Part shown: in pieces, positions 3,781 to 61,796 of the stretch
Numbering within the stretch: position 1 is the stretch's first letter
Layout: every line of letters starts with the position of its first letter
NCBI GenBank assembly: GCA_017475045.1
Contig: JAFVGH010000034.1
Span: 36,839 to 100,838, forward strand
DNA: 64,000 bases
From: Fibrobacter sp.
GTDB lineage: Bacteria > Fibrobacterota > Fibrobacteria > Fibrobacterales > Fibrobacteraceae
Direction of reading: 5' to 3'
The notes under the pieces: generated by a model
Told to the model about the DNA's origin: nothing
What the model saw: the letters and a program-made list of their open reading frames with translations, nothing else
Databases searched by the model: none
Made by a program: the position numbers and the translations under genes

Positions 3781-3792
3781 ATCCCAACTCTG

Positions 3793-4314: not shown

Positions 4315-4318
4315 CAAT

Positions 4319-43484: not shown

Positions 43485-43530
43485 ATGCATATAAAGTTAA
43501 CTTTCCGGGATTGCATACTCGTTCAAGTAG

Positions 43531-43561
43531 CAAAGATATAACTCTTTTCTTAATTATGCAA
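43531..43561 (-). promoter_or_regulatory. Bacteroidetes-type promoter of the OmpA-family gene
   Basis: On the minus strand TTG is followed after 20 bases by TATCTTTG, an exact TAnnTTTG -7 box. The predicted transcript starts about 40 bases before the ATG at 43484. Confidence 0.7.
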
Positions 43562-43570
43562 GCAATCTCC

Positions 43571-43601
43571 GAAAAAACCCGTACAGAACTTCCTGCAACG
43601 G
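43571..43601 (-). terminator. Rho-independent terminator after the first phosphatase gene
   Basis: On the minus strand CCGTTGCAG and CTGTACGG form an interrupted stem that is followed by GTTTTTTC. It lies about 20 bases after the stop codon of the phosphatase lipoprotein and just before the OmpA promoter, so it would separate the two transcripts. Confidence 0.6.
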
Positions 43602-43621
43602 CTTTTTCCGGTAACAGACTC

Positions 43622-45544
43622 TTACTCCAAAAGCAATGCTTTCAATTCTTCGATTTCGTCCAAGGTCAATGCGTTTTCTCCGGTCGTCGCCCAGGCCGTC
43701 ACCTTTTCTTGCATTGTCGCCCCCTGGTAAGTATCCCTAAGATACATAATCATATCTTTGTAAGGATATTTTCTCTGATCAGTAGTAAACGAACCACCGG
43801 TTTGGCTCATATGCCGATACCGTTTGTTTTTCACCGTCATGGAAGTCAATTCAAAATCCTTGGACATATCGCTCTCCGAAACACCCAGCAGCGCTTCGAT
43901 AAGGAAAGCCAACGCTCCGGTCCGGTCAGCGCCACCCGCACAATGGAAGTAGATGGCCTTATCATTGTGCACCCTGAGATAGGTAATAACCTTTTTGATG
44001 GCAGCCCGGTACAATTCTTCCGTTTTTCCGGCAGTCTCAGTCACACCGAGGAACTTCAGCAGTTCAAACTGACACCAATCAATCTCCTTTATGGGACGCG
44101 TTTCATAAGTAATATCGGTTTCATCGGATTTATATCCTCGCAATTCCATATCCAGACCGATACCAAGGTCAATGAAAGTGGCCTTGTCAGTATCAGAGAT
44201 ACCATCGATCAAAGCACCTCTGTACAGCCTTCCATAGCGGATCGTTTTATTCCCGGCCTTCCAACCGCCCAAATCGCGGATGTTGTCCGAAATACTCCCT
44301 ATATAAATCATCCGAACCGGGCCTTCGGGAATAAAACAACCACTCTTGAGGGTGGATCCGTCACTCTTCTTAACCTGATAATAATATAACAATCCGGGAA
44401 TAAGATTGTATATTTTGGCCGGACTGGAAGATGCGCTGACTTCAAATGTAGACCCAGTCTCAAAAGTATGAGTGGTCGATAGAATAACCTTGGATGCTCT
44501 TCCTCCACTCCACTCCAACGATATCGGTTTCGGCTGATCCCCGGTTCTGTAATTGCGAGGGAGGTAATTATTTGTCCCGTAGATACTCGAATATGTATAC
44601 CCTGTATCATCCGTATAATCGACATTCGTCATATAGCTCAAAACATAATCGTTCTCGATGTTATATGACTCCGGAGTCATTCCTTCCGGAATGAAATAGA
44701 CTCCCGTATCAAGCGCAAGATTGCTCCATTGGAACTTAGCACGACGAATAGTCATCGTCGATGCGATGTGCCGTGTGCCGATAAGGCCGTCGGTCCTGAC
44801 AAAGGTGACGGTGAATCCTTGCTCGAAAGTGACAGGCTTCGTGACGAAGAAATACTCGGTCCTGGTCTTGAAGGATGTCTCGCCTTCAGGCGGTGTAAGT
44901 ACTATTTCGTCGCTGCCCGTAAGAACGTTCTGGACATTGGGGTGATTATTCTCGTCTAGAACGACTTCTACAATTCCGGCAAGCGCCGCCCCACTATCGT
45001 TCTTCAGGGTAATTTGGGCGATTCCATCATTCTTCAGGAAAAACTTGATGCCACCGCACAAGTGATAGAACCCCATCGACAAGTCATCGGAACGGCCGAT
45101 GGAGATGAACTGACCGTCAGCGAATGTTCCCTCGGCCGCAACCTGGGAGGAGGGAATCACGGTGGTCAATACCTGACCATCACACGAGTTATTCTCGTTA
45201 TAAGGATAAATTGCCCAATATTGGCTGTTCTGACCCTGGGTAACCTCAATCGTCCCGGTAAAATCCGCTTGCGGCGCACTTTCCGTCAATGTCGATTCAA
45301 AGCGGGCACCGCCTTCAGAACCACTGCCGTAGAATACACTGATTGCATCGTCAGGAGACCAGAAGAAGTTACCACTGGCATCCCGGGACGATTTCGTCAC
45401 ATCGTCAGAAGAATATGCGGAAAGCACCACCTGTCTCTTGATAATAAGGGGCTCATCCACTTGATTCTGAGGTTGTTCCTCAGCCTTACAAGCACCGAGG
45501 AACATGATGGCCACAAGGGCAGTCCAATAATATAAGGTTCGCAT
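43622..45544 (-). CDS. Lipoprotein: fimbrillin-like N-terminus fused to tyrosine phosphatase (copy 1)
   Basis: This 640-residue protein has a lipoprotein signal peptide (hydrophobic run then FLGAC, Cys19). Residues about 30-270 look like a fimbrillin-like domain, with FFWSPDDAISVFYGSGSEG and MGFYHLCGGIKFFLKND. A fibronectin-like stretch follows around IYNLIPGLLYYYQVKKSDGS. The C-terminal third is a tyrosine-phosphatase domain of the DSP3 (Y_phosphatase3) type: RDLGGWKAGNKTIRYGRLYR, then YFHCAGGADRTGALAF with the CX5R active site near Cys535. A surface or periplasmic tyrosine (or broad) phosphatase is predicted; the substrate is unknown. Start 45544 is set by AGGAGG eight bases upstream. A 46-codon gene precedes it directly. 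It closely resembles the next large gene. Confidence 0.85.
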   Translation of the reverse strand: MRTLYYWTALVAIMFLGACKAEEQPQNQVDEPLIIKRQVVLSAYSSDDVTKSSRDASGNFFWSPDDAISVFYGSGSEGGARFESTLTESAPQADFTGTIEVTQGQNSQYWAIYPYNENNSCDGQVLTTVIPSSQVAAEGTFADGQFISIGRSDDLSMGFYHLCGGIKFFLKNDGIAQITLKNDSGAALAGIVEVVLDENNHPNVQNVLTGSDEIVLTPPEGETSFKTRTEYFFVTKPVTFEQGFTVTFVRTDGLIGTRHIASTMTIRRAKFQWSNLALDTGVYFIPEGMTPESYNIENDYVLSYMTNVDYTDDTGYTYSSIYGTNNYLPRNYRTGDQPKPISLEWSGGRASKVILSTTHTFETGSTFEVSASSSPAKIYNLIPGLLYYYQVKKSDGSTLKSGCFIPEGPVRMIYIGSISDNIRDLGGWKAGNKTIRYGRLYRGALIDGISDTDKATFIDLGIGLDMELRGYKSDETDITYETRPIKEIDWCQFELLKFLGVTETAGKTEELYRAAIKKVITYLRVHNDKAIYFHCAGGADRTGALAFLIEALLGVSESDMSKDFELTSMTVKNKRYRHMSQTGGSFTTDQRKYPYKDMIMYLRDTYQGATMQEKVTAWATTGENALTLDEIEELKALLLE

Positions 45545-45556
45545 AGTCATGTCCTC

Positions 45557-45697
45557 CTAGAACCCAGGTTGATCTTCATCTCCCGCCGTCTCTCCCGTCC
45601 CGGTCTGGACAGTTGAAAGAATACATTCTTCCATTTGAAGGTACATTACCTCTGCTTGCGGAGCCTCGTAGCCTATCCGCATGTCTTTCACAATCAT
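45557..45697 (-). CDS. Small leader peptide gene B of phosphatase copy 1 (46 aa)
   Basis: This 46-codon gene starts with MIVKDMRIGYEAPQAEVMYL and continues QMEECILSTV, ending GDEDQPGF. It lies 12 bases after the preceding phosphatase gene's stop and 12 bases before the phosphatase it precedes, with its stop codon overlapping the AGGAGG that serves that gene. The core P-x2-x-V-x2-[LI]-[QK]-[LM]-E-x2-[IFL]-L is shared with three other small genes in the same relative position in this window. There is no signal peptide. Function unknown to me. Confidence 0.7.
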   Translation of the reverse strand: MIVKDMRIGYEAPQAEVMYLQMEECILSTVQTGTGETAGDEDQPGF

Positions 45698-45709
45698 ATT
45701 CTGCTTAGT

Positions 45710-47569
45710 TTATTCCAGCATTAAATCCTTCAGTTCTTGAATTTCTTGATCCGTGAGTGGATCCACATCCTCGGAATGCCGCGTCTTCGCCCAGGCGGTA
45801 ACCTGTTCCTGGATCGTCTTTCCTGGCGCAAAGGTCCGGATATACATTACCATCCCCCTGTAGAACCAGCCGCCGTCGCAATTGCGCCGATGGATGGAGT
45901 TCGAGTAAGTGGTGACTTCAAAATCCTTGGACATATCGCTCTCCGAGACGCCCAGGAGGCCTTCGAGGAGGAACGCGAGCGTCCCCGTGCGGTCGGCCCC
46001 GCCGTGGCAGTGGAAGTAAACCACCTTGCCATCCTTGAGCCAATTGATGATGCAGCGGATGGCGTACTGGTATTGGTCGGCGGTTTCTCCGGGAGAGACA
46101 TCGACCTGGAGGTATTTCTGGGCACTCGGCACAAAATAGTGCCAAAGTTTGATGTTCTTGTAGATGACAGGATCCGTGGGTTTCCAGGGGTTGTTTTCCC
46201 CGCTGCCGCCCTGGGAGCCCGGTGGCAGACCGCGCAGGTCCAAATCGACACCGACACCGAGCCGGTTGACGATAATGTCCATCTTGGATGCATCCTGCTG
46301 GATATCGTCCAGATTGGCGCCGCGGTAGATTTTTCCGTACCGGATCGTCTTATCTCCGGCCTTCCAACCGCCGAGGTCGCGGCTATTCTTGAGCAGACCG
46401 TTAATCATCCGCATCGGTCCCTTCGGGATTACGCAGGACTCCCTGAGGACAGTCCCGTCCGCAGCAAGCACGGAATAGAAATGCCGGACACCCGGAGTCA
46501 GATTATAAATCGATGCGGGAGACTCGCTTACGGAAACATCCCAGGAACCCGAAAGATCGGGAGAGGTCGATATCCGGACGGTCGATGCCTTTCCTTCCCA
46601 GGACAGCTTTACCGGGTTCGGCTTGTCAGTACCGGGGTAATTGGAAACTTCAGAACGGGTGTAATCAGGATCGTCGGAATAATCGACATTCTCCAGATAG
46701 GCCCGGACGCCGGAGTTCTCGATGTCGTAGTCATCGACAGTCTTGTAGTCAACGCGGGACGCATCCAGTTTCGAAGAACGGAACTTATTGCGGTTCAATG
46801 CAATAGACGTAGAAGAACGCACCGTACCTTGTATATCCTCACCCTCGAGAAGGATGGTGTATCCTTTCGTCAGGTTGGTCGGAAGGGTGACGAGGTAATA
46901 CCAAACCCCAGCCTCAAAGGTCTTGCCTTCAGGAGCAGAAAGCGTTACTTCGGGACTTCCCTCCTCTACAGCCTGAACAATCGGCTTTCCATCCTTGTCA
47001 AAACCGACGGAAAACTTCCCCACCAGCGGCTCGCCACCGTTGGAAAGGAACGTAACCGTCTGGATGTCGCTGCGGTCCAGCATGAAACGGAGACCGGAGC
47101 AGACGTTGTAGAACCCCATCTCATAAGTCTCCGTGCGAGCAACTGAGATGAAAAGGTTGTCTCCGAAGGTGCCGGCTACAGCGACCTGCTCGGCAGGAAG
47201 ACTCGTCGAAATGACGTCCTTGGAGATTGACGCCTCGGCAGAATAGGGATACAGTCCATAAATGACCTTGTCCCCGCTCGCCTCAGGAAGCGTCCCCTTG
47301 AACTGCGCCGACGACGCCTTCTCCGTATTTGTCGATGTAAAAGCGACCATCTTCCCACCGCTAAACACCGAAAGGCTCTCTTTCGGCATCCATAGTACGG
47401 TGGAATAATCCGCATTCAGCGTGGTGCGGGTCCCGTCGTTTCCTTCCGTCGTAGCCGTCAGGATGATTTCCTGGTCCGACGGCGGAGTTGGAGTGGCCTC
47501 CTCTTTGGTTGAACAGGCGGCAAACAGGCACAGGGCGGCCCAAAGGCCGAAGCGACTATAACGGTTCAT
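45710..47569 (-). CDS. Lipoprotein: fimbrillin-like N-terminus fused to tyrosine phosphatase (copy 2)
   Basis: This 619-residue paralogue of the previous phosphatase has a lipoprotein signal (LCLFAAC, Cys19). Its fimbrillin-like region includes GTRTTLNADYSTVLWMPKES, LSVFSGGKMVAF and FYNVCSGLRFML. A fibronectin-like stretch has IYNLTPGVRHFYSVLAADG. The phosphatase domain has RDLGGWKAGDKTIRYGKIYR, DLDLRGLPPGSQ and YFHCHGGADRTGTLAFLLEG, with Cys near 521. LLGVSESDMSKDFE is identical in both copies. The opening TRT...W....D.I.VF pattern is that of fimbrillin-like proteins. The start overlaps the preceding small gene by 14 bases. The ATG at 47569 gives the signal peptide; a longer version from 47596 would not. 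Confidence 0.85.
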   Translation of the reverse strand: MNRYSRFGLWAALCLFAACSTKEEATPTPPSDQEIILTATTEGNDGTRTTLNADYSTVLWMPKESLSVFSGGKMVAFTSTNTEKASSAQFKGTLPEASGDKVIYGLYPYSAEASISKDVISTSLPAEQVAVAGTFGDNLFISVARTETYEMGFYNVCSGLRFMLDRSDIQTVTFLSNGGEPLVGKFSVGFDKDGKPIVQAVEEGSPEVTLSAPEGKTFEAGVWYYLVTLPTNLTKGYTILLEGEDIQGTVRSSTSIALNRNKFRSSKLDASRVDYKTVDDYDIENSGVRAYLENVDYSDDPDYTRSEVSNYPGTDKPNPVKLSWEGKASTVRISTSPDLSGSWDVSVSESPASIYNLTPGVRHFYSVLAADGTVLRESCVIPKGPMRMINGLLKNSRDLGGWKAGDKTIRYGKIYRGANLDDIQQDASKMDIIVNRLGVGVDLDLRGLPPGSQGGSGENNPWKPTDPVIYKNIKLWHYFVPSAQKYLQVDVSPGETADQYQYAIRCIINWLKDGKVVYFHCHGGADRTGTLAFLLEGLLGVSESDMSKDFEVTTYSNSIHRRNCDGGWFYRGMVMYIRTFAPGKTIQEQVTAWAKTRHSEDVDPLTDQEIQELKDLMLE

Positions 47570-47681
47570 AATCCACCGGTTCAATGCTATTGTCATTCAA
47601 CTCATCATCCGTCCCACTGGTCAGGAAACCCGTTTCCAGCTTTAGGGCAACAACCCTGGAAAATGGGGGCATGTATGACAT
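47556..47681 (-). CDS. Small leader peptide gene A of phosphatase copy 2 (41 aa)
   Basis: This 41-codon gene starts MSYMPPFSRVVALKLETGFL and ends NSIEPVDYEPL. Its last codons overlap the start of phosphatase copy 2, giving translational coupling. The core VVALKLETGFLTSG lines up with VMYLQMEECILSTV of the gene at 45557 and with the VRIQLEADLLGDSV type of the fimbrillin cassettes. There is no signal peptide. It is short, and support comes from its position and similarity to the other three. Confidence 0.62.
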   Translation of the reverse strand: MSYMPPFSRVVALKLETGFLTSGTDDELNDNSIEPVDYEPL

Positions 47682-47700
47682 GGCAATTCGATATTATGGA

Positions 47701-47726
47701 CATCGCCGGCGATTGGGCCGGCGATG
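47701..47726 (-). terminator. Hairpin after the minus-strand fimbrillin cassette
   Basis: CATCGCCGGC and GCCGGCGATG form a perfect 10-base stem with a 6-base loop. It lies 38 bases after the stop of the last cassette gene and 20 bases before the small gene of the phosphatase unit. There is no T-run in the leftward direction. It resembles the hairpin at 42106. Confidence 0.5.
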
Positions 47727-47764
47727 TCGGATGTGGTATTCACAAAGAAACTATACGCTCTTTA

Positions 47765-49927
47765 TTAGAATGTAAGCTGGATCAAAGCTTCGTTGAAGAA
47801 TTCCTTGTTCAAGTCGTTGATCTTGATTGCAGTAGAATTACCTCCGCTAAGACGGGTCTTGAAATAGCACGGATACTCATTCTTGTACTTATACTCACCG
47901 TTTTCCTGAAGCTCAGCATATTCGTCGAAAGCGATGGTCTTAACGAAATAGTAGTTGTGCAATTTCTCTGACCCAGGCTCATTAAAGGCAGATACACCAT
48001 GCTTCACAGGAAGTGAGGATTCATCACCATGAACGACACTGCGCAAACCATTGTTCTGCGGCTCGATCATGATCTGAAGCGGGAAGATGTCACGAGGCAG
48101 ACCGTCCGGCAACATGAGATAAACTACAACATCCTGATTGGACGTATCCGTTGCACCGGCAGCATGAACCGCCGAACACTCTTCTCCGTCAGCCACGAAA
48201 TTCTGCTTGTCCATGACAGTGAAAATAATCTCACGATAGAGGGGCCGTTGACCGGCTTTTTGACCCTGGACTCTGACCTTGCTCATCTTTTCACCACCTT
48301 CGGAACCAAGAAGCTGAACCGTCACCGTTCCATCTCCATTATCCTTGATGCCATCTACAAAACCATCATCATCCTTGTCCTGGTCAATAGCACTAGCATA
48401 GCCAGAGACCTCCATCTGAGTGATGCTGATCGTGACATTACCACTGGAAGCCGTGACAGCAGGGCCATTGGCATCGGGATAGAATGCGAAAGTAAAGGAC
48501 TTCGGCTTGGCCGCACCAACACTGGTGATACTAGTCTGGCTGACCTGAATCTTGGAAGTCTGGGTCCCGATTTCATTCAACATCGAGGTAGCGATGTTAG
48601 CCGAGATATCGCCAAGCCAGTCACCATTATAAGCATTCTGAGGAGTCTTATGATGCTTGGGAGCCTTGATGCCCGTGACCTGGAAATTGTACACAATATT
48701 CCGAAGGATGGGAAGATAACCATTCTCATTCATAAAGGAAATCTTGTAATACCGCGGCATTCCATCTGCTGCTTCAGGACCAGTCTTCCACGTCACTTCA
48801 ATAAGCGCTCCGGATTCCTTGAAAACCGGATTATTGGACGGAATAGAACGCTCATACATATAACCAAACTCCGTACCAGGCGTAAAGAAATCATCAGCAG
48901 CCGGAACCGTGGTCGTATTGAGTTCACGAGAATTGACATATCCGACATAACTTCCCATCACGTCGTCAGCATCGACGGTCTGCTCGTTAATCTTCGTATA
49001 GATCGTACGATAGCCGTCATTTCCGGAATAAGGAACAACTGCTCCGGTACGGGGAGTATCGATCAGATAAAAACCGGTAATATCAAAATCGTCCGAATCA
49101 GAGGTGATGGTAATCTTGGCGAAATTGCGGATGAGCGGGAGATCGTGCAATTTCTCGATAGGGGCCGCTACATAATCCTCATCATCGGAATAAATAGGCT
49201 GATCATTCTGATCGTATCCGATGATGTAAGTGGAGGTCTCATATTGCCCATCAACTACATTCGGTTTCACTCCGTCAATCCGAACACGCTGCCAATAAGC
49301 TGCTTTTCCCGCCTCAGAGTAAATAAGAGGCATCAAATCGGCTTCCGTGGCGTTTTCAACTTTCCCATTGATTGTAACCGTCGACGGAAGAGGATTATCC
49401 AGCGTGTAAGGATCCCCATCCGGCGCATCGTATGCTCCGACCAGGAAATCAAGCACTAAAGGCTCATTGGAAAGAGGCATCAAGACCTCATACTCGACAC
49501 TGTAAGTCTTAACAGTCCGATAAAGGAGATTACCCTCCTCATCTTTCATCTGCTCTCCCTTACCATTCAGAACCGGGACCTGTTTTGTCGTACCGTCATC
49601 GTTGTGAACAATCGATTCCTTAAGGTGGGGTTTCAGGAAATGGCGCAGGATACCGCCAGTTTTCTCATCCTCACCACCGCCGAAGACCGCCACATAGAGG
49701 TCTCCGTTATCGATCGTATATGGCTGATCACCGATATCGTGCTGAGCACGGGTCTGGGTGGCATACAGCATCGTTTCAGGAACGGTAACCGAGAAAGTCA
49801 CCAAAGCCATATCCCCGTCCTTGGGAGGGACGGTTGTGTAGGACACTTTCTGCACAGGCATATTCTCCCGGGTGCAAGCAACCAGGCACAGAAGAGCGGC
49901 GCTGAAAATATAGATAATCTTTTTCAT
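47765..49927 (-). CDS. Fimbrillin-type lipoprotein, third gene of minus-strand cassette
   Basis: This 720-residue lipoprotein has the signal KKIIYIFSAALLCLVAC (Cys18). It contains PLSNEPLVLDFLVGAY and LIRNFAKITITSDSDDFDIT, the latter like the conserved L-x-R-x-x-A-K-I motif of FimA/Mfa-type fimbrillins. The late section has QRPLYREIIFTVMDKQNFV, LPDGLPRDIFPLQIMIEPQN and a C-terminal beta-strand-like STAIKINDLNKEFFN. The paralogue at 59044 shares all these. A role in fimbria assembly or anchoring is inferred from the fimbrillin-like motif and from its place at the end of a fimbrial-type operon. The ATG at 49927 is chosen over a TTG upstream. Confidence 0.75.
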   Translation of the reverse strand: MKKIIYIFSAALLCLVACTRENMPVQKVSYTTVPPKDGDMALVTFSVTVPETMLYATQTRAQHDIGDQPYTIDNGDLYVAVFGGGEDEKTGGILRHFLKPHLKESIVHNDDGTTKQVPVLNGKGEQMKDEEGNLLYRTVKTYSVEYEVLMPLSNEPLVLDFLVGAYDAPDGDPYTLDNPLPSTVTINGKVENATEADLMPLIYSEAGKAAYWQRVRIDGVKPNVVDGQYETSTYIIGYDQNDQPIYSDDEDYVAAPIEKLHDLPLIRNFAKITITSDSDDFDITGFYLIDTPRTGAVVPYSGNDGYRTIYTKINEQTVDADDVMGSYVGYVNSRELNTTTVPAADDFFTPGTEFGYMYERSIPSNNPVFKESGALIEVTWKTGPEAADGMPRYYKISFMNENGYLPILRNIVYNFQVTGIKAPKHHKTPQNAYNGDWLGDISANIATSMLNEIGTQTSKIQVSQTSITSVGAAKPKSFTFAFYPDANGPAVTASSGNVTISITQMEVSGYASAIDQDKDDDGFVDGIKDNGDGTVTVQLLGSEGGEKMSKVRVQGQKAGQRPLYREIIFTVMDKQNFVADGEECSAVHAAGATDTSNQDVVVYLMLPDGLPRDIFPLQIMIEPQNNGLRSVVHGDESSLPVKHGVSAFNEPGSEKLHNYYFVKTIAFDEYAELQENGEYKYKNEYPCYFKTRLSGGNSTAIKINDLNKEFFNEALIQLTF

Positions 49928-49944
49928 ATTCAAATTCTCCTATT

Positions 49945-52296
49945 CTAGTTGTTTAAAGTGCCAGGATAGAAACGATGGACATCATCACCCGTTACAGCGG
50001 GTTCTTCGCCCCAATACCAGATATCATAGACACAACGGATGGAGTGAACGTCATTCCCAGGAGCCTGGAACGTTGTACCATTACCATTGTTAGTCCAGTC
50101 AAAGACATTACCAGACGAAGCATGATAACCTGCCCCGCCATTGAACAAATGCGGAATGACGTCCATGTGCTGGAGGCAGTAAGCGAAATAAAGCTCAGCT
50201 TCCGTAGGAAGTCTCCAACGTCCGGCAGGATAACCGGCTTCCTGATAAGTAGCACAACGCTTTGCAGCATTCTCGTAAACTACACCATTATTGCCAGGTC
50301 GGCCACCGCGATCGGAATTGAACATATAAGCCGGAGCAATAATATTCTTGTCCCTACCAGTAACCATAATCTTATCCACGTTCTCCCACGCTTCTGTATG
50401 AGCAGGAGAAGCATTAGTACCCTGGCCAGTACCACCCCAGAGATAAGGATTCAAGTCCCGGTGACCCTCCTCAAACAATTCATTCCAAGGAACCCTGGGA
50501 TCGCCAATGATATACTCAAAATCAGTTTTATTACCACTACCGGGTTGACCACTAGTTGTACCGTTGCTGTAAACAGAATAAGAACTCGAACTCGGGGCGA
50601 AAGCGGTCACCGTAACAATAGTCATTGTAGTACCCTTATCGCTTGTAGTAGTTTGATTCAAGCGACCATAGCTACCAGTTTCGGAATTGTTCGGACTGGA
50701 GAACAAATCACCAGAATTGCGCCAACGATAATAGTCGCCATTATGATGTTCTGAACTCGGAGCGTTATAAACAGAAGCAGTTTGAAGAGCGTAATAACCA
50801 TTAATGAAACTGTTTCCACCCTCGATGAGTTCCGCATAAATGGACGGGTACTGGGTGATTTTGACCGTAACAGTTTTATCATCCAGATACGGTTCGCCGT
50901 CAGTGGTTGCTTTATGTCGGATTGTGACAGTCCATTCAATCGGCGTACAGTCAAATGTTTCATTATGAGTAACGGTAATATCGGGATCCAACTCATAATG
51001 CAAGTCGAACAACTCGCTGCCAGTCGCAACACAATAATTCCCAGTGTTAGGTTTACTATTAAGAGTTACCGCACGCGGGTTTTTAGTCCCACCCTGGACG
51101 GTTTTCTGCGTTCCGACACAACTGACGATCTCGATATCGTTACTGGAAACGACCGGAACGGAAATATCATCGATACCGTAAATCGTATATTCCTTAACCG
51201 GGACATCCAGGTACAGAGCACTCTCGAATTCAGCAGCGACAGCCGTAGGTTCGAACCAGTTGGCGACATAAATATAGTCGGCAACCAGAGCCCAGTCGTC
51301 CTCAGTTCCACCAGGGGCGGACACATCCACGGTCAGCGTATAAATCGTATTCCGCTTGAAGGTCTCCAATTGAGGAAGGATGATCTTGTAGTAGAAATTG
51401 TTCATACCCTTGGAAGTGCAGGTCCACGGGCAATACAGTTTGAAATAAGGAGCCTTGTTGTCGCTCGTGGAGAAAGCCTGCGGATAGGTATAAACCGCCT
51501 CGGTGGTCCAACTGGTGTAGTCTTCCTTGGCAGAAGTCGTAGATGTCGGCGCAACCTGGTCAGTCGTAAAATAGTCCGTTTTCACGGTAGTAAACTCCAC
51601 CGGAGTAGCTTCAACGACTGCACTCTTGAGGGCATTCACGAAATTCACCCACATCTGGTCCGTAACGGGGGTCCAAGTATTATTGAAATCATCCGTATAC
51701 GAATCTGCGACATTGAATTTGAGGACCAACTTGGCAGCCGTGCGGGTGAGACCAATCTTAAAGGTCTTCGAATCACCTGCCTTGGACGGAGAGATATACT
51801 TCATATACTCCTCGCTCGAACTGTCGTAGGAGTCCATCACGAAATACTCGATTTTCTTGCTCAAATCAGTTTTGATATCGAGAGCAAGAATGTCCTCGAG
51901 GGTTTCCGCGGTGATCGCTTCCGGATAGTTGGCGATGACATAGACATAGGACGGTCCCTGAAGCGGTCCATCGTGGGTATCGGTACGTACGTCAAACGTA
52001 TATTCGTAAAGATTATCGCTAACGGCGACAAGTTCTCCCTCGGCGACATTCTTCCGGACATGGTCGATCAGTTGCGTACCTTCTTCATCCTTGAAGAAGA
52101 AGAAATCAGCATGTTTGACGACGTTCTCGACATTGACTTCCTCGTCGCCGTCGGCACGGGTCTGCAATTCAGACGTCTGAAGCTGAAGGGTGATGACACC
52201 GTCGCCATCCTCAGGGATGACGGGGGTTTCCACAGTGCAGGAAGCAGCAAAGGCTAACGCTGCAACAATCGAAAAATAAGTAATGATTCTTTTCAT
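49945..52296 (-). CDS. Fimbrillin-type lipoprotein with C-terminal FISUMP/DUF1566-like domain, second gene of minus-strand cassette
   Basis: This 783-residue lipoprotein has the signal KRIITYFSIVAALAFAASC (Cys20). The first half carries fimbrillin-like features: HADFFFFKDEEGTQL, YVYVIANYPEA, FKIGLTRTAAKLVLKFNV. The C-terminus (about 690-765) has RCATYQEAGYPAGRWRLPTE, then HSIRCVYDIWYW. This RWRLPT...RCV pattern resembles the Fib_succ_major/DUF1566 or C-type-lectin-like domains that occur at surface-protein C-termini. It may be a tip or minor fimbrial subunit. The paralogue is at 56564-59020. It lies 15 bases after the first cassette gene. Confidence 0.78.
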   Translation of the reverse strand: MKRIITYFSIVAALAFAASCTVETPVIPEDGDGVITLQLQTSELQTRADGDEEVNVENVVKHADFFFFKDEEGTQLIDHVRKNVAEGELVAVSDNLYEYTFDVRTDTHDGPLQGPSYVYVIANYPEAITAETLEDILALDIKTDLSKKIEYFVMDSYDSSSEEYMKYISPSKAGDSKTFKIGLTRTAAKLVLKFNVADSYTDDFNNTWTPVTDQMWVNFVNALKSAVVEATPVEFTTVKTDYFTTDQVAPTSTTSAKEDYTSWTTEAVYTYPQAFSTSDNKAPYFKLYCPWTCTSKGMNNFYYKIILPQLETFKRNTIYTLTVDVSAPGGTEDDWALVADYIYVANWFEPTAVAAEFESALYLDVPVKEYTIYGIDDISVPVVSSNDIEIVSCVGTQKTVQGGTKNPRAVTLNSKPNTGNYCVATGSELFDLHYELDPDITVTHNETFDCTPIEWTVTIRHKATTDGEPYLDDKTVTVKITQYPSIYAELIEGGNSFINGYYALQTASVYNAPSSEHHNGDYYRWRNSGDLFSSPNNSETGSYGRLNQTTTSDKGTTMTIVTVTAFAPSSSSYSVYSNGTTSGQPGSGNKTDFEYIIGDPRVPWNELFEEGHRDLNPYLWGGTGQGTNASPAHTEAWENVDKIMVTGRDKNIIAPAYMFNSDRGGRPGNNGVVYENAAKRCATYQEAGYPAGRWRLPTEAELYFAYCLQHMDVIPHLFNGGAGYHASSGNVFDWTNNGNGTTFQAPGNDVHSIRCVYDIWYWGEEPAVTGDDVHRFYPGTLNN

Positions 52297-52311
52297 AACT
52301 GTTCCTGCTAT

Positions 52312-53889
52312 TTAGTTGCGATAATGCTCATCGTTAACAAAGAAGGTATGATATCCACGCCCACGGTCATAAAGCTGGGTTTCGGAATCGATACTGAACT
52401 TGTTGTCGTACTTGTCATATACATAGGACTTGAAGAAGAGGCTGTGAGCCTCACCGGCCGTACCCTTGTAAGTGATTGTCACCTCAACAAGCGTACTTTC
52501 CTTATCTGACATGTTCCCGGAGATAGTATAAGGTGTTTCGGCTTCCGCATCAGCCGGAGTAGCGGTACCGCCGGTAATTGTGAAGAGGCTCGGATCAAAG
52601 GCTGTGGGTTCAGCCTCAGTTCCGCCATAAACCTCGAGCTCCCATTTGCCACCAAGAGGAAGCATAACCTTGAACGAGAAGGACACGGTCTCTCCATCCT
52701 TGAAATACCACTGCTGGCGATAAGGATCCTTGACACCATTGCCAACGTTCAGGCCATCGGGACCGCCGTTCTTAGCACCAACCACGATGAACTGCGTGGC
52801 CTGCGGAAGATCCGCGGCATCAGCAGAAGCATTTTCGGTCTCCCACTCCAGCACTTCGAGCTGCAGGGTGATGTAGTTGAAGTACCAGCCGGTAGGCAGG
52901 ATGACGCCGTTCATCCGGTGCTTCTTGGCGCCATCGAAGGTCATCCAAGTAGTTTTGTCATTTTTAAGAAGTTTCAAAGTCTTGGTACCCTCGTTGGTGT
53001 AGAAGGTAACTTTCAGGTTGGTAATGTCCTGTGGAAGGGCAAAGACATTGAACGTAAGGTTGGGATTATCCTTGTCGAGGGTAATACCGTCGCCCAAGGT
53101 AGCCTTGACGGTCTTGGCAGCATCACTAGCCTTGACGTAGGTCCACTTCCCATCCGTTCCGCATGTGGCCGTGAAACCACCGGAAAGCTCGGAAGAGGTA
53201 GAGGTGAACTCTACTTCGGTAATGGTAACGGAATATGCCGCCGCAGCCTCATCATCCTGAGGAATTCCAAGATTGAACTCGAAGTCAGTAAATGCAGGAT
53301 TGAACGGGAGATCCACAGTCTTGCCGGCCTTGGCACCGCTGACATATCCCAGCATTACAGCCTGCTGCATATCAGGAGCATAGGCTTCGGTAGTCGCATT
53401 CTGGGTCAAAGCTTGCTCGGCTTCAATCTTAAGCTGAATTGCATTGTTGTCCATGTCCAGAAGGGATGCCTTGTCCGCCGCCAAAGCGGGATAAGCAGCC
53501 CATAACGTGCTGCCCGGGTTCTCCTTCGGATACACCAGGCCACTGCCGGTAGGATCTGTGATAGTAGCGATACTCTTCTCGTCGGATTCGGTGATTGTGC
53601 CGATTGTGTACACGGCCAGGTTCGAGTTGCCGGCGAAGTAAGGAGTACCCCCCGTACGAACGGTAGCGTTTTCGCTCCAGACCATGATCTTGTCACCTGC
53701 GGTCCAGTCGATGCGCTCCTTACCGTTCTTGATCACGCCGCTATAGGCGGTACGGGTCTCATAACCCGTGCTCGCGCTGAAACGGACGAGGTTGTCGGAG
53801 TCGTTGTTGATTTCGGGTCCTTTCTGACATCCGGTCAGGGAAAGGAGGATGCCTGCGCTCAGCAGGATGATGTTTGTGAACTTTTTCAT
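52312..53889 (-). CDS. Fimbrillin-like lipoprotein, first gene of minus-strand cassette
   Basis: This 525-residue lipoprotein has the signal KKFTNIILLSAGILLSLTGC (Cys21). Its opening matches the fimbrillin-like (Mfa-like) family: RFSASTGYETRTAYSG, then RIDWTAGDKIMVWSENATVR. It also has SELSGGFTATCGTDGKWTYV, VFALPQDITNLKVTFYTNEG and a C-terminal YDRGRGYHTFFVNDEHYRN. The paralogue at 54968-56548 shares these, with YDRGRGYHTFFVN exact. As first gene of the cassette it could be the main stalk subunit; that is inferred. The ATG at 53889 follows AGGAGG nine bases upstream. Confidence 0.8.
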   Translation of the reverse strand: MKKFTNIILLSAGILLSLTGCQKGPEINNDSDNLVRFSASTGYETRTAYSGVIKNGKERIDWTAGDKIMVWSENATVRTGGTPYFAGNSNLAVYTIGTITESDEKSIATITDPTGSGLVYPKENPGSTLWAAYPALAADKASLLDMDNNAIQLKIEAEQALTQNATTEAYAPDMQQAVMLGYVSGAKAGKTVDLPFNPAFTDFEFNLGIPQDDEAAAAYSVTITEVEFTSTSSELSGGFTATCGTDGKWTYVKASDAAKTVKATLGDGITLDKDNPNLTFNVFALPQDITNLKVTFYTNEGTKTLKLLKNDKTTWMTFDGAKKHRMNGVILPTGWYFNYITLQLEVLEWETENASADAADLPQATQFIVVGAKNGGPDGLNVGNGVKDPYRQQWYFKDGETVSFSFKVMLPLGGKWELEVYGGTEAEPTAFDPSLFTITGGTATPADAEAETPYTISGNMSDKESTLVEVTITYKGTAGEAHSLFFKSYVYDKYDNKFSIDSETQLYDRGRGYHTFFVNDEHYRN

Positions 53890-53905
53890 GGTTGGTCCTC
53901 CTTTT

Positions 53906-54085
53906 TTACTCCCAGTAGGATTCCACATCATCATTAACATAGGAGAGGTCATGCTCCACGAGCTCATGGCCCAGGATGACAGCTCTCGTGTTGTCTTTGA
54001 CGGAATCTCCTAACAGGTCCGCTTCCAACTGGATTCGGACCTCCTGGATTACCCTCGGGGTTACGAATTGCTTTTTCATACGCAT
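53906..54085 (-). CDS. Small leader peptide gene of minus-strand cassette (59 aa)
   Basis: This 59-codon gene is the first of the minus-strand cassette. It reads MRMKKQFVTPRVIQEVRIQL, EADLLGDSVKDNTRAVILGH and ends in YVNDDVESYWE. It is exactly as long as its partner at 54774-54953, and 42 of 59 positions are identical by my count. It has no signal peptide and no cysteine. The stop is 16 bases before the fimbrillin ATG. The ATG at 54085 is preferred because the equal length matches the partner; 54079 is the alternative. Function unknown. Confidence 0.82.
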   Translation of the reverse strand: MRMKKQFVTPRVIQEVRIQLEADLLGDSVKDNTRAVILGHELVEHDLSYVNDDVESYWE

Positions 54086-54120
54086 AAATCGATTATGTTT
54101 GTTCTAGTCTTATCTATTTC

Positions 54121-54182
54121 CTTCCTTTTATGGCCATGATGCGAACCAAAAACACTGTAAGCGGTTTTGGCCGAGCATCACA
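54121..54182 (-). promoter_or_regulatory. Possible hairpin in the minus-strand leader
   Basis: In the leader RNA the stretch GATGCTCGGCCAAAAC can pair imperfectly with GTTTTTGGTTCGCATC around a loop of about 10 bases. It lies between the predicted transcript start and the small gene. It could affect expression of the cassette; support is only the pairing. Confidence 0.35.
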
Positions 54183-54213
54183 TCACCCAAAAATGGCCAT
54201 AGTTTTCAATGTG

Positions 54214-54244
54214 CAAAGATAATTATAATAATGGATTATACAAA
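54214..54244 (-). promoter_or_regulatory. Promoter of the minus-strand fimbrillin cassette
   Basis: On the minus strand TTTG is followed after 19 bases by TATCTTTG, a full match to the Bacteroidetes sigma-ABfr consensus. The transcript would start near 54207, about 120 bases before the small gene. Confidence 0.72.
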
Positions 54245-54601
54245 TAAAATAGAGAAAATCTCTACTCGGACAAGCGGAAAGATTTTCAAAAACGAACGAA
54301 TAATGATGCATAATCCCCTAAATACTAACGATTTGAAACCCATTCTTCCCCGAGCACAAGGGGAAATGCCGTTCTACAAGCAAGAAATGCCCATATTTAG
54401 ACTAGACAAAGATAATTTCTTCGACTGATTTCTTCCGGAATTCTATCCGGATAACCATACTATGAAAAACAGGAGGGTCAGAATATTCAGAATTCCGAAC
54501 AGAATATGGCATATTTCTTCTAAGTGCCAAAAAAACAGAAAGATAGGACGCATCTCGAGTATTGAGGAGCCTCTGATCAGACAAAAACTGGTTAAAAAAA
54601 T

Positions 54602-54633
54602 TTTGTAATAAGAATTAAATTTCTTTAAATTTG
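54602..54633 (+). promoter_or_regulatory. Promoter of the plus-strand fimbrillin cassette
   Basis: TTTG is followed after 20 bases by TAAATTTG, a full match to the Bacteroidetes consensus. The transcript would start near 54640, about 135 bases before the small gene at 54774. Confidence 0.72.
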
Positions 54634-54639
54634 TGCCAG

Positions 54640-54719
54640 TTTTGGTGTGCCTGACAAGAAGAACATCACCCCCGCCGTTCTGGCGATCCTTCCGAAAACT
54701 TTTTGTCGGCACCCCAAAA
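54640..54719 (+). promoter_or_regulatory. Imperfect inverted repeat in the plus-strand leader
   Basis: TTTTGGTGTGCCTGAC at 54640-54655 pairs with GTCGGCACCCCAAAA at 54705-54719 with one mismatch and one bulge. The arms enclose 49 bases and lie just after the predicted transcript start, so the leader RNA could form a long stem-loop. Its role is unknown. Confidence 0.4.
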
Positions 54720-54773
54720 TATTGGTGTAAACTGCAGATTTAAAGAATGTAAGTTAAAGCAATATAATCGATT

Positions 54774-54953
54774 ATGCTAAAGAAAAAACATTTTGAAACT
54801 CCGATGGTCCTCCAGGAGGTCCAGATCCAACTGGAAGCAGACTTGCTAGGAGGATCCGTCAAGGAAAACACGAGAGCCATCATCCTAGGCCATGAGGTCG
54901 AGGATCATGATCTAGGTTATGTGAATCAGGACCAAAGTTCCTACTGGGAGTAA
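54774..54953 (+). CDS. Small leader peptide gene of plus-strand cassette (59 aa)
   Basis: This 59-codon gene is the first of the plus-strand cassette. It reads MLKKKHFETPMVLQEVQIQL, EADLLGGSVKENTRAIILGH and ends YVNQDQSSYWE. It is the mirror-image partner of 53906-54085, with identical length and about 71 percent identity. It has no signal peptide or cysteine. Its stop lies 14 bases before the fimbrillin ATG, with AGGAGG in the gap. Retention of the SYWE end and the QLEADLLG core in both copies shows selection on the peptide itself. Confidence 0.82.
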   Translation: MLKKKHFETPMVLQEVQIQLEADLLGGSVKENTRAIILGHEVEDHDLGYVNQDQSSYWE

Positions 54954-54967
54954 AAGGAGGACGAATC

Positions 54968-56548
54968 ATGAAGAGAATTACAAACATCCTCCTGCTGAGC
55001 GCAGGTATCCTCCTTTCTCTGACGGGATGTCAGAAAGGAAACAAAGCGGAGAACACCGGGAATCTCGTCCGGTTCAACGCAAAAACGGGGAATGAGACCC
55101 GTACCGCTTATAGCGGTAAGATTACCAACAACTTTGAGCGCATCGATTGGAAGGCCGGCGACCAGATTATGGTCTGGAGCGACAACGCGACTGTCCGGCA
55201 GGGTGGCACACCCTATTTCTCCGGGAACAGCAATCTTGCCGTGTACACGATTGGCTCAATCACCGCCAGCAACGAACAGAGCATCGCCTCGATTGAGGAT
55301 CCCGCCGGCAACGGTCTGCAGTATCCGAACAATAATTCGGGCAGCACGCTCTGGGGCGTATATCCAGCTTCCGCTGTGACGGCCTCCCCTTCTGGCGGCA
55401 GTGTTTCCTTCACCATCGACGCCGAACAGACATTGGCAGAGAACGACAATACCGTTACCTCCGATTCGAATCCCTATGTGGACTTTGTCCCTGATATGGA
55501 CCAGGCATATATGGTTGCCTATGTCAGTGGCGCCAAGGCCGGCAAGACTGTGGATCTCCCGTTCAAACCGGCTTTCACCGACTTCGAATTCAACCTTTCC
55601 ACCAAGTTGGATTATGACCTGACCGTTACCGCCATAGAGATAACCTCCACCTCCACGGCCCTTTCCGGCGGCTTCACGGCCTCTTGTGGGACTGACGGAA
55701 CTTGGACGTATGCCATCGCCGATAACTCCAGCAAGTCTGTCAAGGCGATTCTTCCCAACAGTGGTTTTACCATCAATGCAGCCAATCCCTATCTTTCCCT
55801 CAACGTCTTCGCCCTGCCGCAGGACCTGACCAACCTGAAGGTCACCTTCTACACCAACGAGGGAACCAAAACCTTGAAGCTGCTCGATTCCGACAAGACT
55901 ACCTGGTTATCATTCGCCGGTGCCAAGAAACATAGACTCAACGGCATCCTTCTGCCTACCGGCTGGGTCTTCAGCTACATTACACTGGATCTCAAAGTGC
56001 TGAGTTGGGAAGCCAAGGAGATTGATGGCGTCTCCGGTGAGTTCCCGCAGACCACGCAATTCTCAGTTACCGGTGAAGGTGTCATGAACGGATACAAAGA
56101 TCTGGGACAGGGAGATGCTGACAATCAGGATCCTTACCGCCAGCAATGGTATTTCAAGCCCGGCCAGACGGTAGAGGTATACTTTAAAGTGAATCTTCCT
56201 GCGGGCGGAACCTGGGAGGTCGTGCCTATGGGCGGCACGGAAGCCAATCCCGTCGAGGCCGATGCGACTCTTTTCACGATCCGGAATGTTTCTCCGGCCG
56301 TCAACGGCGTCGCGACTGTTGCAACCAACCTCTATGGCCCCATCGCTCAGACCGGCAGTACGGACGTAAAACTGGAGATCACCTACAACGGTACTGATAC
56401 CAATCCCCACAGCTTCTATTTCCACACCTATGTGTACAGCGGCGCGAACAGAACCGGAACCAAGTATAATGTCGATTCCGAGACACAGCTGTACGACCGC
56501 GGACGTGGTTATCACACGTTCTTCGTCAACAATGCGTTGTATAAATAA
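54968..56548 (+). CDS. Fimbrillin-like lipoprotein, first gene of plus-strand cassette
   Basis: This 526-residue lipoprotein has the signal KRITNILLLSAGILLSLTGC (Cys21) and the fimbrillin-like opening RFNAKTGNETRTAYSG, then RIDWKAGDQIMVWSDNATVR. Further parts shared with the copy at 52312 are VAYVSGAKAGKTVDLPF, VFALPQDLTNLKVTFYTNEG and the C-terminal YDRGRGYHTFFVN. It is the paralogue in the same position of the mirrored cassette. Probable surface fimbrial subunit. AGGAGG lies eight bases before the ATG. Confidence 0.8.
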   Translation: MKRITNILLLSAGILLSLTGCQKGNKAENTGNLVRFNAKTGNETRTAYSGKITNNFERIDWKAGDQIMVWSDNATVRQGGTPYFSGNSNLAVYTIGSITASNEQSIASIEDPAGNGLQYPNNNSGSTLWGVYPASAVTASPSGGSVSFTIDAEQTLAENDNTVTSDSNPYVDFVPDMDQAYMVAYVSGAKAGKTVDLPFKPAFTDFEFNLSTKLDYDLTVTAIEITSTSTALSGGFTASCGTDGTWTYAIADNSSKSVKAILPNSGFTINAANPYLSLNVFALPQDLTNLKVTFYTNEGTKTLKLLDSDKTTWLSFAGAKKHRLNGILLPTGWVFSYITLDLKVLSWEAKEIDGVSGEFPQTTQFSVTGEGVMNGYKDLGQGDADNQDPYRQQWYFKPGQTVEVYFKVNLPAGGTWEVVPMGGTEANPVEADATLFTIRNVSPAVNGVATVATNLYGPIAQTGSTDVKLEITYNGTDTNPHSFYFHTYVYSGANRTGTKYNVDSETQLYDRGRGYHTFFVNNALYK

Positions 56549-56563
56549 TAAGCAGGATCAGTT

Positions 56564-59020: not shown

Positions 59021-59043
59021 TACTATATAGAATGGACAGAATT

Positions 59044-61194: not shown

Positions 61195-61216
61195 TACTGA
61201 GCACATACAAAACAAA

Positions 61217-61251
61217 GTCGCCCGGGAAATCTCCCGAGCGGCTTTTGTTTT
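61217..61251. terminator. Bidirectional Rho-independent terminator
   Basis: GTCGCCCGGGA and TCCCGAGCGGC form an 11-base stem with one mismatch and a four-base loop, followed by TTTTGTTTT. On the other strand the hairpin is followed by CTTTGTTTTG. It lies between the convergent plus-strand cassette and the minus-strand thioredoxin-like gene and serves both. Confidence 0.85.
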
Positions 61252-61280
61252 ATACTATGATCGGCTAAAAAGAGAAGCCT

Positions 61281-61796
61281 CTATTTCAGCGCCTCCTCAA
61301 CCGCCTTCTCAATCTCCTCCCCCTTCATATCCCGGGCGATGATATTGCCGTCAGGGCCGAAAAGAATGACAAGCGGAATGCTGTCAATATCAAACCGGCC
61401 ATCCGGTTCGGCGTCTTCCACAAACACGAAATGAGGGAAGGTCATGCCCCACTCCGGGATGGCGTCCATGGAGTCCTGGATTTCGTCGCCGTAGGTGACG
61501 CCGAGGACTTTCACCTTGCCCGCGTACTTCTTGTAGATGGCCTGGACATAAGGGACTTCCTCGCGGGCTTCATCGGACCAGGAGGCCCAGAAGAAGGCCA
61601 GGGTGTAATTACCCTTGGTCACTTGCTGATCCCAGAGGGTGTAGGTCAGGACAACCTTGCCGGACTTGTTCAAAGTCAGGTAGGCGTTCTTGAAACCGCC
61701 GGAGGGCGGAGGATCCTGGGCTTTCGCCTCAAAAGATAACGAAAAAAGCATGGCTGTCAGCAAGCTGAAGCCGATGCCGTGTAAAAACCGTTTCAT
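61281..61796 (-). CDS. Thioredoxin-fold (TlpA-like) periplasmic protein without CxxC
   Basis: This 171-residue protein has a Sec signal peptide ending SFEAKA before QDP. The mature part has the TlpA/AhpC layout: YTLAFFWASWSDEAREEVPY, then KVKVLGVTYGDEIQDSM, IDSIPLVILFGPDGNIIARD (cis-proline IP motif) and a C-terminal helix. In active relatives the WASW is followed by CxxC; here it is SDEA, so no redox cysteine remains. It cannot act as a disulfide reductase and may have a structural or binding role. A 53-codon gene ends two bases upstream. Confidence 0.85.
   Translation of the reverse strand: MKRFLHGIGFSLLTAMLFSLSFEAKAQDPPPSGGFKNAYLTLNKSGKVVLTYTLWDQQVTKGNYTLAFFWASWSDEAREEVPYVQAIYKKYAGKVKVLGVTYGDEIQDSMDAIPEWGMTFPHFVFVEDAEPDGRFDIDSIPLVILFGPDGNIIARDMKGEEIEKAVEEALK

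What the first reader, a model, noticed from the sequence alone, without database searches (positions are those of the whole stretch)
45557..54953. A family of 41-59 codon genes in front of every fimbrillin and phosphatase unit
Four units in this island (two phosphatase lipoproteins, two fimbrillin cassettes) are each preceded by a small gene at 45557, 47556, 53906 and 54774. The peptides differ in length but align on a core: YLQMEECILSTV, ALKLETGFLTSG, RIQLEADLLGDSV, QIQLEADLLGGSV, with a proline 7-10 residues before. Each lies 12-16 bases from, or overlaps, the lipoprotein start. The two 59-residue copies are about 71 percent identical with no gaps. They have no signal peptide. They may be translation-coupling leaders, chaperone-like or regulatory peptides for the lipoproteins. 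I know of no function for such a family.
Basis: partly seen in the sequence, partly recalled or inferred. Interest (0 to 1): 0.8.

Follow-up and report, generated by a model that had tools for sequence, protein, structure and literature searches.

The report
Tiny partner genes of fimbrillin-like lipoproteins
In the Bacteroidales genomes examined here, a family of roughly 40-60-residue proteins of unknown function is encoded right beside genes of predicted exported proteins, above all directly in front of lipoproteins with a fimbrillin-like first module, and each small protein is likely a dedicated helper for making or exporting its neighbour, which would add an unnoticed part to how these bacteria build their surface.

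Summary
All four small ORFs exist, and each abuts (12-16 nt) or overlaps (-14 nt) a lipoprotein gene. They form two subfamilies sharing an N-terminal motif (Y-x-x-P ... E-x-x-[IL]-[LC]-x-S): the 59-residue pair (type A) and the 46/41-residue peptides (type B), which a profile without window sequences ranks first and second of 2085 contig ORFs (E 8.7e-7, 2.3e-4). 'Fimbrillin' and 'phosphatase' units share one N-terminal module: of nine window proteins tested, only the four behind a peptide carry it. Elsewhere 22 of 25 type A peptides precede that module; in a 400-kb stretch of one relative 9 of 9 type B hits do, and 0 of 258 genes without the module have a peptide. Genomes hold up to 33 matches (E <= 1). 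dN/dS of the window pair is 0.18. In two distant genomes ten copies follow other genes, mostly with signal-peptide-like starts, which speaks against a mere upstream leader. No Pfam or NCBIfam model matched beyond chance. I favour a cognate cytoplasmic escort of the exported neighbour (inferred; confidence about one third); regulator and leader stay open. The contig is a Bacteroidales contaminant in its bin.

The parts
54774..54953 (+). Type A small gene, 59 codons, heads the rightward pilus cassette
   Evidence: ORF; homologues; followed by N-module lipoprotein (E 2.7e-21); dN/dS
53906..54085 (-). Type A small gene, 59 codons, heads the leftward pilus cassette
   Evidence: ORF; 71% identity to the other copy; N-module lipoprotein follows (E 2.9e-24)
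47556..47681 (-). Type B small gene, 41 codons, overlaps the start of phosphatase lipoprotein 2 by 14 nt
   Evidence: ORF; hold-out HMM E 2.3e-4, rank 2 of 2085 ORFs
45557..45697 (-). Type B small gene, 46 codons, in front of phosphatase lipoprotein 1
   Evidence: ORF; hold-out HMM E 8.7e-7, rank 1 of 2085 ORFs; four database relatives 74-89% identical
54968..56548 (+). Fimbrillin-like lipoprotein, partner of the 54774 gene
   Evidence: N-module HMM E 2e-21
52312..53889 (-). Fimbrillin-like lipoprotein, partner of the 53906 gene
   Evidence: N-module HMM E 1.9e-24; 61% identical to the other copy
45710..47569 (-). Phosphatase lipoprotein 2 (N-module plus Y_phosphatase3), partner of the 47556 gene
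   Evidence: Pfam PF13350 E 1.4e-19; N-module E 9.7e-66; start chosen at the Met before the lipobox
43622..45550 (-). Phosphatase lipoprotein 1 (N-module plus Y_phosphatase3), partner of the 45557 gene
   Evidence: Pfam PF13350 E 1.2e-24; N-module E 9.4e-59
49945..52296 (-). FimD-type tip adhesin of the leftward cassette; no peptide, no N-module
   Evidence: NF052322 E 7.8e-82; N-module E 18
47765..49933 (-). Third gene of the leftward pilus cassette; no peptide
   Evidence: weak Fimbrillin_C and FimD matches; N-module E 0.03
56564..59020 (+). FimD-type tip adhesin of the rightward cassette
   Evidence: NF052322 E 4.5e-80; N-module E 18
58999..61194 (+). Third gene of the rightward pilus cassette (ORF from its first GTG)
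   Evidence: ORF; N-module E 0.19
54602..54633 (+). Bacteroidetes-type promoter-like site (TTTG-N20-TAnnTTTG) towards the rightward cassette
   Evidence: pattern scan; consensus recalled, function not shown
54214..54244 (-). Bacteroidetes-type promoter-like site towards the leftward cassette
   Evidence: pattern scan; consensus recalled, function not shown

Best explanation
The four small genes belong to a family, under selection on its amino acids, that sits directly in front of lipoproteins sharing a fimbrillin-like N-terminal module, and its product is likely a dedicated cytoplasmic escort (export helper) of that one neighbour. Shown: the pairing, its specificity for the module in the stretch tested, the selection, the acidic composition of type B, and the other gene order in two distant genomes. 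By inspection only: no hydrophobic signal segment. Inferred: that the peptide is translated at useful levels; that it meets its partner before or during Sec export; that the conserved N-terminal half (Y-x-x-P ... E-x-x-[IL]-[LC]-x-S) docks on a component common to all copies; and that the variable acidic C-terminal half suits the particular partner. One copy per exported protein would let a genome run dozens of such pairs side by side.
For: Specific pairing: in 400 contiguous kb of relative G092 (a contig chosen for its length in a peptide-rich genome; four of its peptides were already listed), 9 of 9 peptide hits lie directly before an N-module lipoprotein; 9 of 16 N-module genes have one, 0 of 72 other lipoprotein-like genes and 0 of 186 other genes do (Fisher 5e-13). 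Type A: 22 of 25 located peptides precede an N-module lipoprotein, by an HMM made from type B partners only. Peptide-picked loci: 67 of 73 type B rows are followed by a lipoprotein within 40 nt. In the window the module is in the four partners and in none of five other proteins tested. Selection: dN/dS 0.18 for the window pair, 0.15 for the RUG436 pair, 0.05-0.42 for the further pairs close enough to use, except one pair near 0.7 (L110/L119). Other gene order: in G261 and G443 10 of 10 peptides follow a co-directional ORF of 158-2117 codons (gap -4 to 136 nt) and none has a co-directional ORF of 90 codons or more within 60 nt after it. 63 of 63 type B peptides are net acidic. The C-terminal half tracks the partner more closely than the N-terminal half in both samples (r 0.56 against 0.37; 0.37 against 0.22).
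Against: No binding, expression or phenotype is shown. AlphaFold2 gives no fold for either subfamily alone (mean pLDDT 64 and 65, pTM 0.19), unlike known secretion chaperones. 7 of 16 N-module genes in the 400-kb stretch lack a peptide hit, although by the coordinates two of these start 9 nt behind a peptide-headed one; among 82 lipoproteins picked by the module about half had a motif-bearing small ORF. The C-half correlation could reflect physical closeness to the partner gene rather than specificity. In G261/G443 the partners lack the module (E >= 0.15), so no single substrate feature explains all copies. Two type A copies stand in a capsule-type locus behind an UpxY-like gene with no N-module partner, and two type B rows are followed by a non-lipoprotein gene (L182, L198).
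Confidence: 0.35

Rival explanations
1. Trans-acting regulator: each surface-protein unit carries as first gene a small protein that tunes its own unit or silences others, as UpxY/UpxZ do for capsule operons.
For: It stands in front of the partner in most copies read and has many copies per genome; two type A copies lie right behind an UpxY-like antiterminator gene (recognised by eye); the review PMC12632263 (passages seen) describes UpxY/UpxZ antitermination and cross-locus repression in Bacteroides.
Against: No domain match beyond chance level (Pfam: four window peptides and 41 type B; NCBIfam: four window, 28 type A, 41 type B); position behind another gene in ten distant copies; specificity for one protein module in the stretch tested.
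Confidence: 0.25
2. Cis-acting leader: translating the peptide opens or gates the start of the next gene by coupling or nascent-chain stalling; the product has no life of its own.
For: Short, narrow spacing (67 gaps from -14 to +33 nt) with recurrent overlaps such as -14 and -4; TAnnTTTG promoter-like motifs in the 120 nt before the type B peptide more often than inside it (33 of 92 against 2 of 92), though 19 of 92 also have one on the control strand, and type A shows 3 of 23 against 2 of 23.
Against: Coupling alone does not conserve amino acids (dN/dS 0.18); ten distant copies lie behind another gene with none close after; among type B the sharpest residues lie in the N-terminal half, not near the stop; no general ribosome-binding-site feature (9 of 67 reach 6 nt against 4% of shuffles); no Rfam element in window 43000-61500.
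Confidence: 0.2
3. Precursor of a processed and exported peptide (bacteriocin or signal) with the [GAS]-S or C-x-S site as cleavage point.
For: Spacing E ... [IL]L-x-[GAS]-S resembles a double-glycine leader in part (my comparison); many copies with differing tails.
Against: No bacteriocin-leader model among the NCBIfam lines; Peptidase_C39 (PF03412) found in 0 of 13 peptide-rich genomes while 8 of 14 control genomes ring; the tail is conserved in type A. Modification enzymes were not searched for.
Confidence: 0.08

Closest known systems
Dedicated type III secretion chaperones (recalled)
   Same: Small acidic cytoplasmic proteins, one per exported substrate, encoded next to it on either side
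   Different: Those are folded dimers of about 15 kDa for another secretion route; these are about 40-60 residues with no predicted fold and no family match
UpxY/UpxZ regulators of Bacteroides capsule operons (PMC12632263, passages seen; position in operons recalled)
   Same: First genes of many variable surface loci in one genome
   Different: No family match; beside protein genes, not polysaccharide operons, except two type A copies; ten distant copies lie behind another gene
NVEALA peptides in front of beta-propeller lipoproteins of Bacteroides (recalled)
   Same: Short hypothetical proteins just upstream of a lipoprotein family
   Different: No Pfam match beyond chance level for the four window peptides or 41 type B members
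Double-glycine leader peptides / bacteroidetocins (PMC10352776, passages seen; PMC6671954, search listing only)
   Same: Short Bacteroidales peptides with a small-residue motif after an E ... [IL] stretch
   Different: No leader-model match, no C39 transporter in 13 of 13 genomes, acidic tails
Type V pilus subunits FimA/Mfa1 with FimD tip (NF052322; Mfa_like_1)
   Same: The partner genes are of this kind
   Different: The small genes matched no pilus model in the scans made

Membership tests
Double-glycine bacteriocin/RiPP precursor | Match to a curated leader model | tested here: not met
   NCBIfam scans of all 28 type A and 41 type B members list no such model
Double-glycine bacteriocin/RiPP precursor | C39 peptidase transporter in the genome | tested here: not met
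   PF03412: 0 of 13 peptide-rich genomes; control rings in 8 of 14
Cis-acting leader peptide | Lies upstream of the regulated gene | tested here: inconclusive
   True for 67 of 73 type B rows and 22 of 25 type A; not true for 10 of 10 copies in G261/G443
Pure translation-coupling leader | No selection on the amino acids | tested here: not met
   dN/dS 0.18 over 59 codons
Dedicated secretion chaperone | Small, acidic, encoded beside its substrate | tested here: met
   63 of 63 type B acidic; adjacency; that the neighbour is a substrate is inferred
Dedicated secretion chaperone | Stable chaperone fold | tested here: not met
   AlphaFold2 pTM 0.19 for both subfamilies, as monomers
Dedicated secretion chaperone | Binds the substrate and is needed for its export | not testable with these tools
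   needs the bench
UpxZ-type regulator | Sequence membership | tested here: not met
   no Pfam or NCBIfam match beyond chance level; no direct comparison with an UpxZ sequence was made

The most novel reading that the evidence does not exclude
Bacteroidales build a large set of fimbrillin-module surface lipoproteins as two-gene pairs, each with its own tiny unfolded escort whose shared half plugs into a common export step and whose acidic tail fits the partner: an unrecognised one-escort-per-adhesin system with dozens of copies in a single genome.
Probability: 0.3. Interest if true: 0.85.

Novelty: new variant of a known kind. Interest (0 to 1): 0.62.

Why it matters
Type V pili and their fimbrillin-like relatives are main surface adhesins of Bacteroidales, and how the many subunits are kept export-ready or switched is, as far as I know, largely open. 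A small protein in front of 9 of 16 genes of this module in a sampled 400-kb stretch, and of none of 258 others, gives a concrete candidate component: it can be deleted, tagged and pulled down. It also unites fimbrillins, BspA-type repeat proteins, BACON proteins and lipoprotein tyrosine phosphatases as one class with a common first module and a common small partner, and gives two profiles by which overlooked genes can be annotated.

Tried and rejected
Own genome as reference: rejected. The UppS on contig C16 is at most 48% identical to those of the 38 other genomes with a match (of 40 searched), while the bin has a second UppS of the genus kind; FimD reaches its cut-off in 1 of 60 genomes, G000 itself. 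The contig is a Bacteroidales contaminant. A scan of genome contigs with the 59-residue peptide found nothing, one with the fimbrillin pair found a single locus, L017 of RUG436, which I used as centre.

Ribosome-binding-site idea: the window and RUG436 cassettes have strong AAGGAGG-like sites after the peptide, but only 9 of 67 pairs reach 6 nt against 4% of shuffles. Not general, dropped.

C-half specificity: a first correlation (r 0.43 for the C-half, -0.07 for the N-half) was distorted by how I had sampled. Redone by set, both halves correlate and the C-half more; reported as weak.

Peptide resembling a segment of its own partner: no (z 0.8). T9SS link: the profile used rang in no control genome, so it says nothing. 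Structure: no fold for either subfamily, so no fold search was made. Specificity over all gene kinds was tested on 400 kb of one relative only. Translation, promoter use and inversion were not testable. Literature: searches showed, in their listings, no paper that I could recognise as about such a family; only passages of PMC10352776 and PMC12632263 were seen.
Full report
WHAT IS THERE. The window holds two mirrored pilus cassettes and two phosphatase lipoproteins. Leftward from 54085: a 59-codon gene, a fimbrillin-like lipoprotein (52312-53889), a FimD-type tip adhesin (49945-52296; NF052322 E 7.8e-82), a third gene (47765-49933), a 41-codon gene, a phosphatase lipoprotein, a 46-codon gene and a second phosphatase lipoprotein. 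Rightward from 54774: a 59-codon gene, a fimbrillin-like lipoprotein, a FimD-type gene and a third gene. None of the four has a Pfam line at E <= 1, and the only NCBIfam line is a chance-level 0.13 for the 46-residue one.

WHERE THE WINDOW COMES FROM. The window is bases 36839-100838 of contig C16 of G000 (contig length). The UppS gene of C16 is at most 48% identical to those of the 38 other genomes with a match (of 40 searched), and G000 has a second UppS of the genus kind. C16 is therefore a Bacteroidales contig binned with another lineage. The one related locus found by scanning genome contigs with the fimbrillin pair is L017, 'uncultured Bacteroidales bacterium isolate RUG436'; the 59-residue peptide itself found none there. 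L017 has the same mirrored layout, with peptides of 61 and 55 residues heading two divergent cassettes, and served as centre G060.

TYPE A. A profile of six type A peptides searched in 150 relatives of G060 gave 37 genomes at E <= 1; 21 matches in 18 genomes reach E <= 2e-4, two of them the RUG436 copies in the profile itself. I took 27 type A peptides for a partner check; two (database proteins P0002 and P0003) have no DNA here. Of the 25 located, 22 are followed by a lipoprotein with the N-module described below (E <= 8.2e-4), one ends at a contig end, and two (L031, L032) are not. L035 (near-copy of L033, followed by a lipoprotein) and L039 (near a contig end) were left out of that count. 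In a database of 5.8 billion proteins the type A profile finds 296 proteins at E <= 1; 120 were listed, and those with a source name are 'hypothetical protein', with a Bacteroidales bacterium where an organism is given.

TYPE B AND THE SHARED MODULE. The phosphatase lipoprotein searched in the same 150 relatives hit 70 genomes at E <= 1e-10, by its first 280 residues, by the phosphatase part, or by both; the first part is a module carried by many lipoproteins per genome. Of 82 lipoprotein starts taken from such module hits, 44 had a motif-bearing small ORF at -30 to +40 nt, against 69 of 990 background small ORFs; in three of the 44 I judged the ORF a wrong pick (L122 and L145; L104 has a correct one as well). 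A profile of 41 type B peptides, including the two window ones, then found 62 of 91 genomes at E <= 1, up to 33 matches per genome. Reading 70 of those loci, 15 of which hold peptides already in the profile, gave 73 rows, 67 followed by a lipoprotein within 40 nt; the six others are L182 and L198 (non-lipoprotein gene next), one row each of L186 and L207 without a following gene, L210 (193 nt) and L224 (157 nt). Of 67 downstream proteins aligned (two of them from L210 and L224), all have the lipobox Cys and at least 90% the Trp of a W-x-x-G-D-x-I-x-V-F consensus; Pfam at E <= 0.01 sees Mfa_like_1 in 4 of 67, and BACON (7), BspA-type LRR_5 (6), Lcl_C (4), Thioredoxin (3) and Y_phosphatase3 (2) among others.

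TESTS THAT COULD HAVE FAILED. (1) Hold-out: HMMs from 39 and from 94 type B peptides without window sequences rank 45557 first (E 1.2e-6; 8.7e-7) and 47556 second (E 0.14; 2.3e-4) of 2085 contig ORFs. (2) An N-module HMM from 58 type B partners, none from the window, hits the four peptide-headed lipoproteins (E 9.7e-66, 9.4e-59, 1.9e-24, 2e-21) and none of five other window proteins (E 0.03 to 18). (3) In 20 consecutive 20-kb slices of a G092 contig, with HMMs trained without G092, 9 peptide hits (E <= 0.05; 8945 ORFs in the slices) all precede an N-module lipoprotein; 9 of 16 N-module genes, 0 of 72 other lipoprotein-like genes and 0 of 186 other genes have a peptide (Fisher 5.4e-13 against all others, 2e-8 against other lipoproteins). 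I chose this contig for its length in a peptide-rich genome; four of its peptides were already listed and one of these pairs (L217) had been read. My lipoprotein call is lenient (88 of 274 genes), so the 72 'other lipoproteins' surely include false ones; the test against all 258 others does not depend on it. (4) Selection: dN/dS 0.18 at dS 1.0 for the window pair, 0.23 for the two partner genes, 0.15 for the RUG436 pair; other usable pairs 0.05-0.42, one near 0.7.

SUBFAMILIES. Types A and B align by profile over 24 N-terminal columns (probability 75%, E 2.5e-5). In type B the information peaks are Y, P, E, [LI], C/L and S of the first half. Type A has a conserved tail (T-x-G-Q-E-V ... F-N-x-x-W-E). 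All 63 type B peptides tested are net acidic.

SPREAD AND ORDER. In 295 genomes sampled from the order, 10 (G060 included) have type B hits at E <= 1e-3. I read 20 of the 24 listed places outside G060: 10 are followed by a lipoprotein, 8 of them with the N-module at E <= 2e-10, one at 0.004 and one without; the other 10 have no co-directional ORF within 60 nt. Eight of those ten lie in G261 and G443 and were read with wider flanks, which added two more peptides; the remaining two (L234, L246) were not. All ten peptides of G261/G443 follow a co-directional ORF of 158-2117 codons, gap -4 to 136 nt, with none of 90 codons or more within 60 nt after. Seven of these partners begin with a signal-peptide-like stretch by inspection; the starts of three lie outside the stretch or are unclear. 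Pfam finds fn3, cohesin, dockerin or InlB-type repeats in six of the seven scanned, and none of nine shows the N-module (E >= 0.15). G261 also has one peptide in front of an N-module lipoprotein (L245).

HOW IT LIKELY WORKS. Selection on the protein and the other gene order make a mere leader unlikely for the family as a whole. Constant adjacency, one copy per partner, acidity and a conserved front half with a variable back half fit a dedicated partner acting before export. That is inference. The lack of a predicted fold fits a peptide that folds on its partner, but it is no support by itself. A trans-acting regulator fits nearly as well. A double-glycine exported peptide does not: Peptidase_C39 is in 0 of 13 peptide-rich genomes.

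NOVELTY. No Pfam or NCBIfam model matched beyond chance level in the scans made (best E 0.024, an enzyme model hit by one member; type A was scanned against Pfam with the two window copies only), and none of seven literature searches listed a paper that I recognised as about it. As small proteins beside exported partners are a known kind of arrangement, I rate it a new variant of a known kind with its function open.

Noticed in passing
L017:3556-4796 (RUG436): Between the two divergent pilus cassettes lies a tyrosine-recombinase-like gene (3739-4545, recognised by eye, no family scan), flanked by perfect 18-bp inverted repeats (3607-3624 / 4724-4741) and with one promoter-like site pointing right (4639-4670): probably an invertible switch choosing one of two pili.
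   Followed up: partly
window 54086-54773: The window's intergenic region has no recombinase-sized ORF and one promoter-like site in each direction; a 13-bp imperfect inverted repeat (92%) sits at the two small-gene starts (54087-54099 / 54761-54773).
   Followed up: partly
window 43622-47596: Two lipoproteins join a fimbrillin-like module to a tyrosine phosphatase domain with an intact H-C-x5-R-T-G signature.
   Followed up: partly
L061:7685-7870(-) and L062:7509-7694(-): Type A peptides directly behind an UpxY/NusG-like antiterminator gene (by eye) in polysaccharide-type loci, with an outer-membrane-like protein after them.
   Followed up: partly
G000 contig C16: The contig is a Bacteroidales contaminant in a bin of another lineage; G+C falls from 59% and 55% in the flank pieces to 46% in the window.
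   Followed up: yes
L083 (minus strand): A lipoprotein-type gene of the relative G077 ends in a tail that looks like the C-terminal half of a type B peptide, just before the next N-module gene: perhaps a fusion or recombination scar.
   Followed up: no
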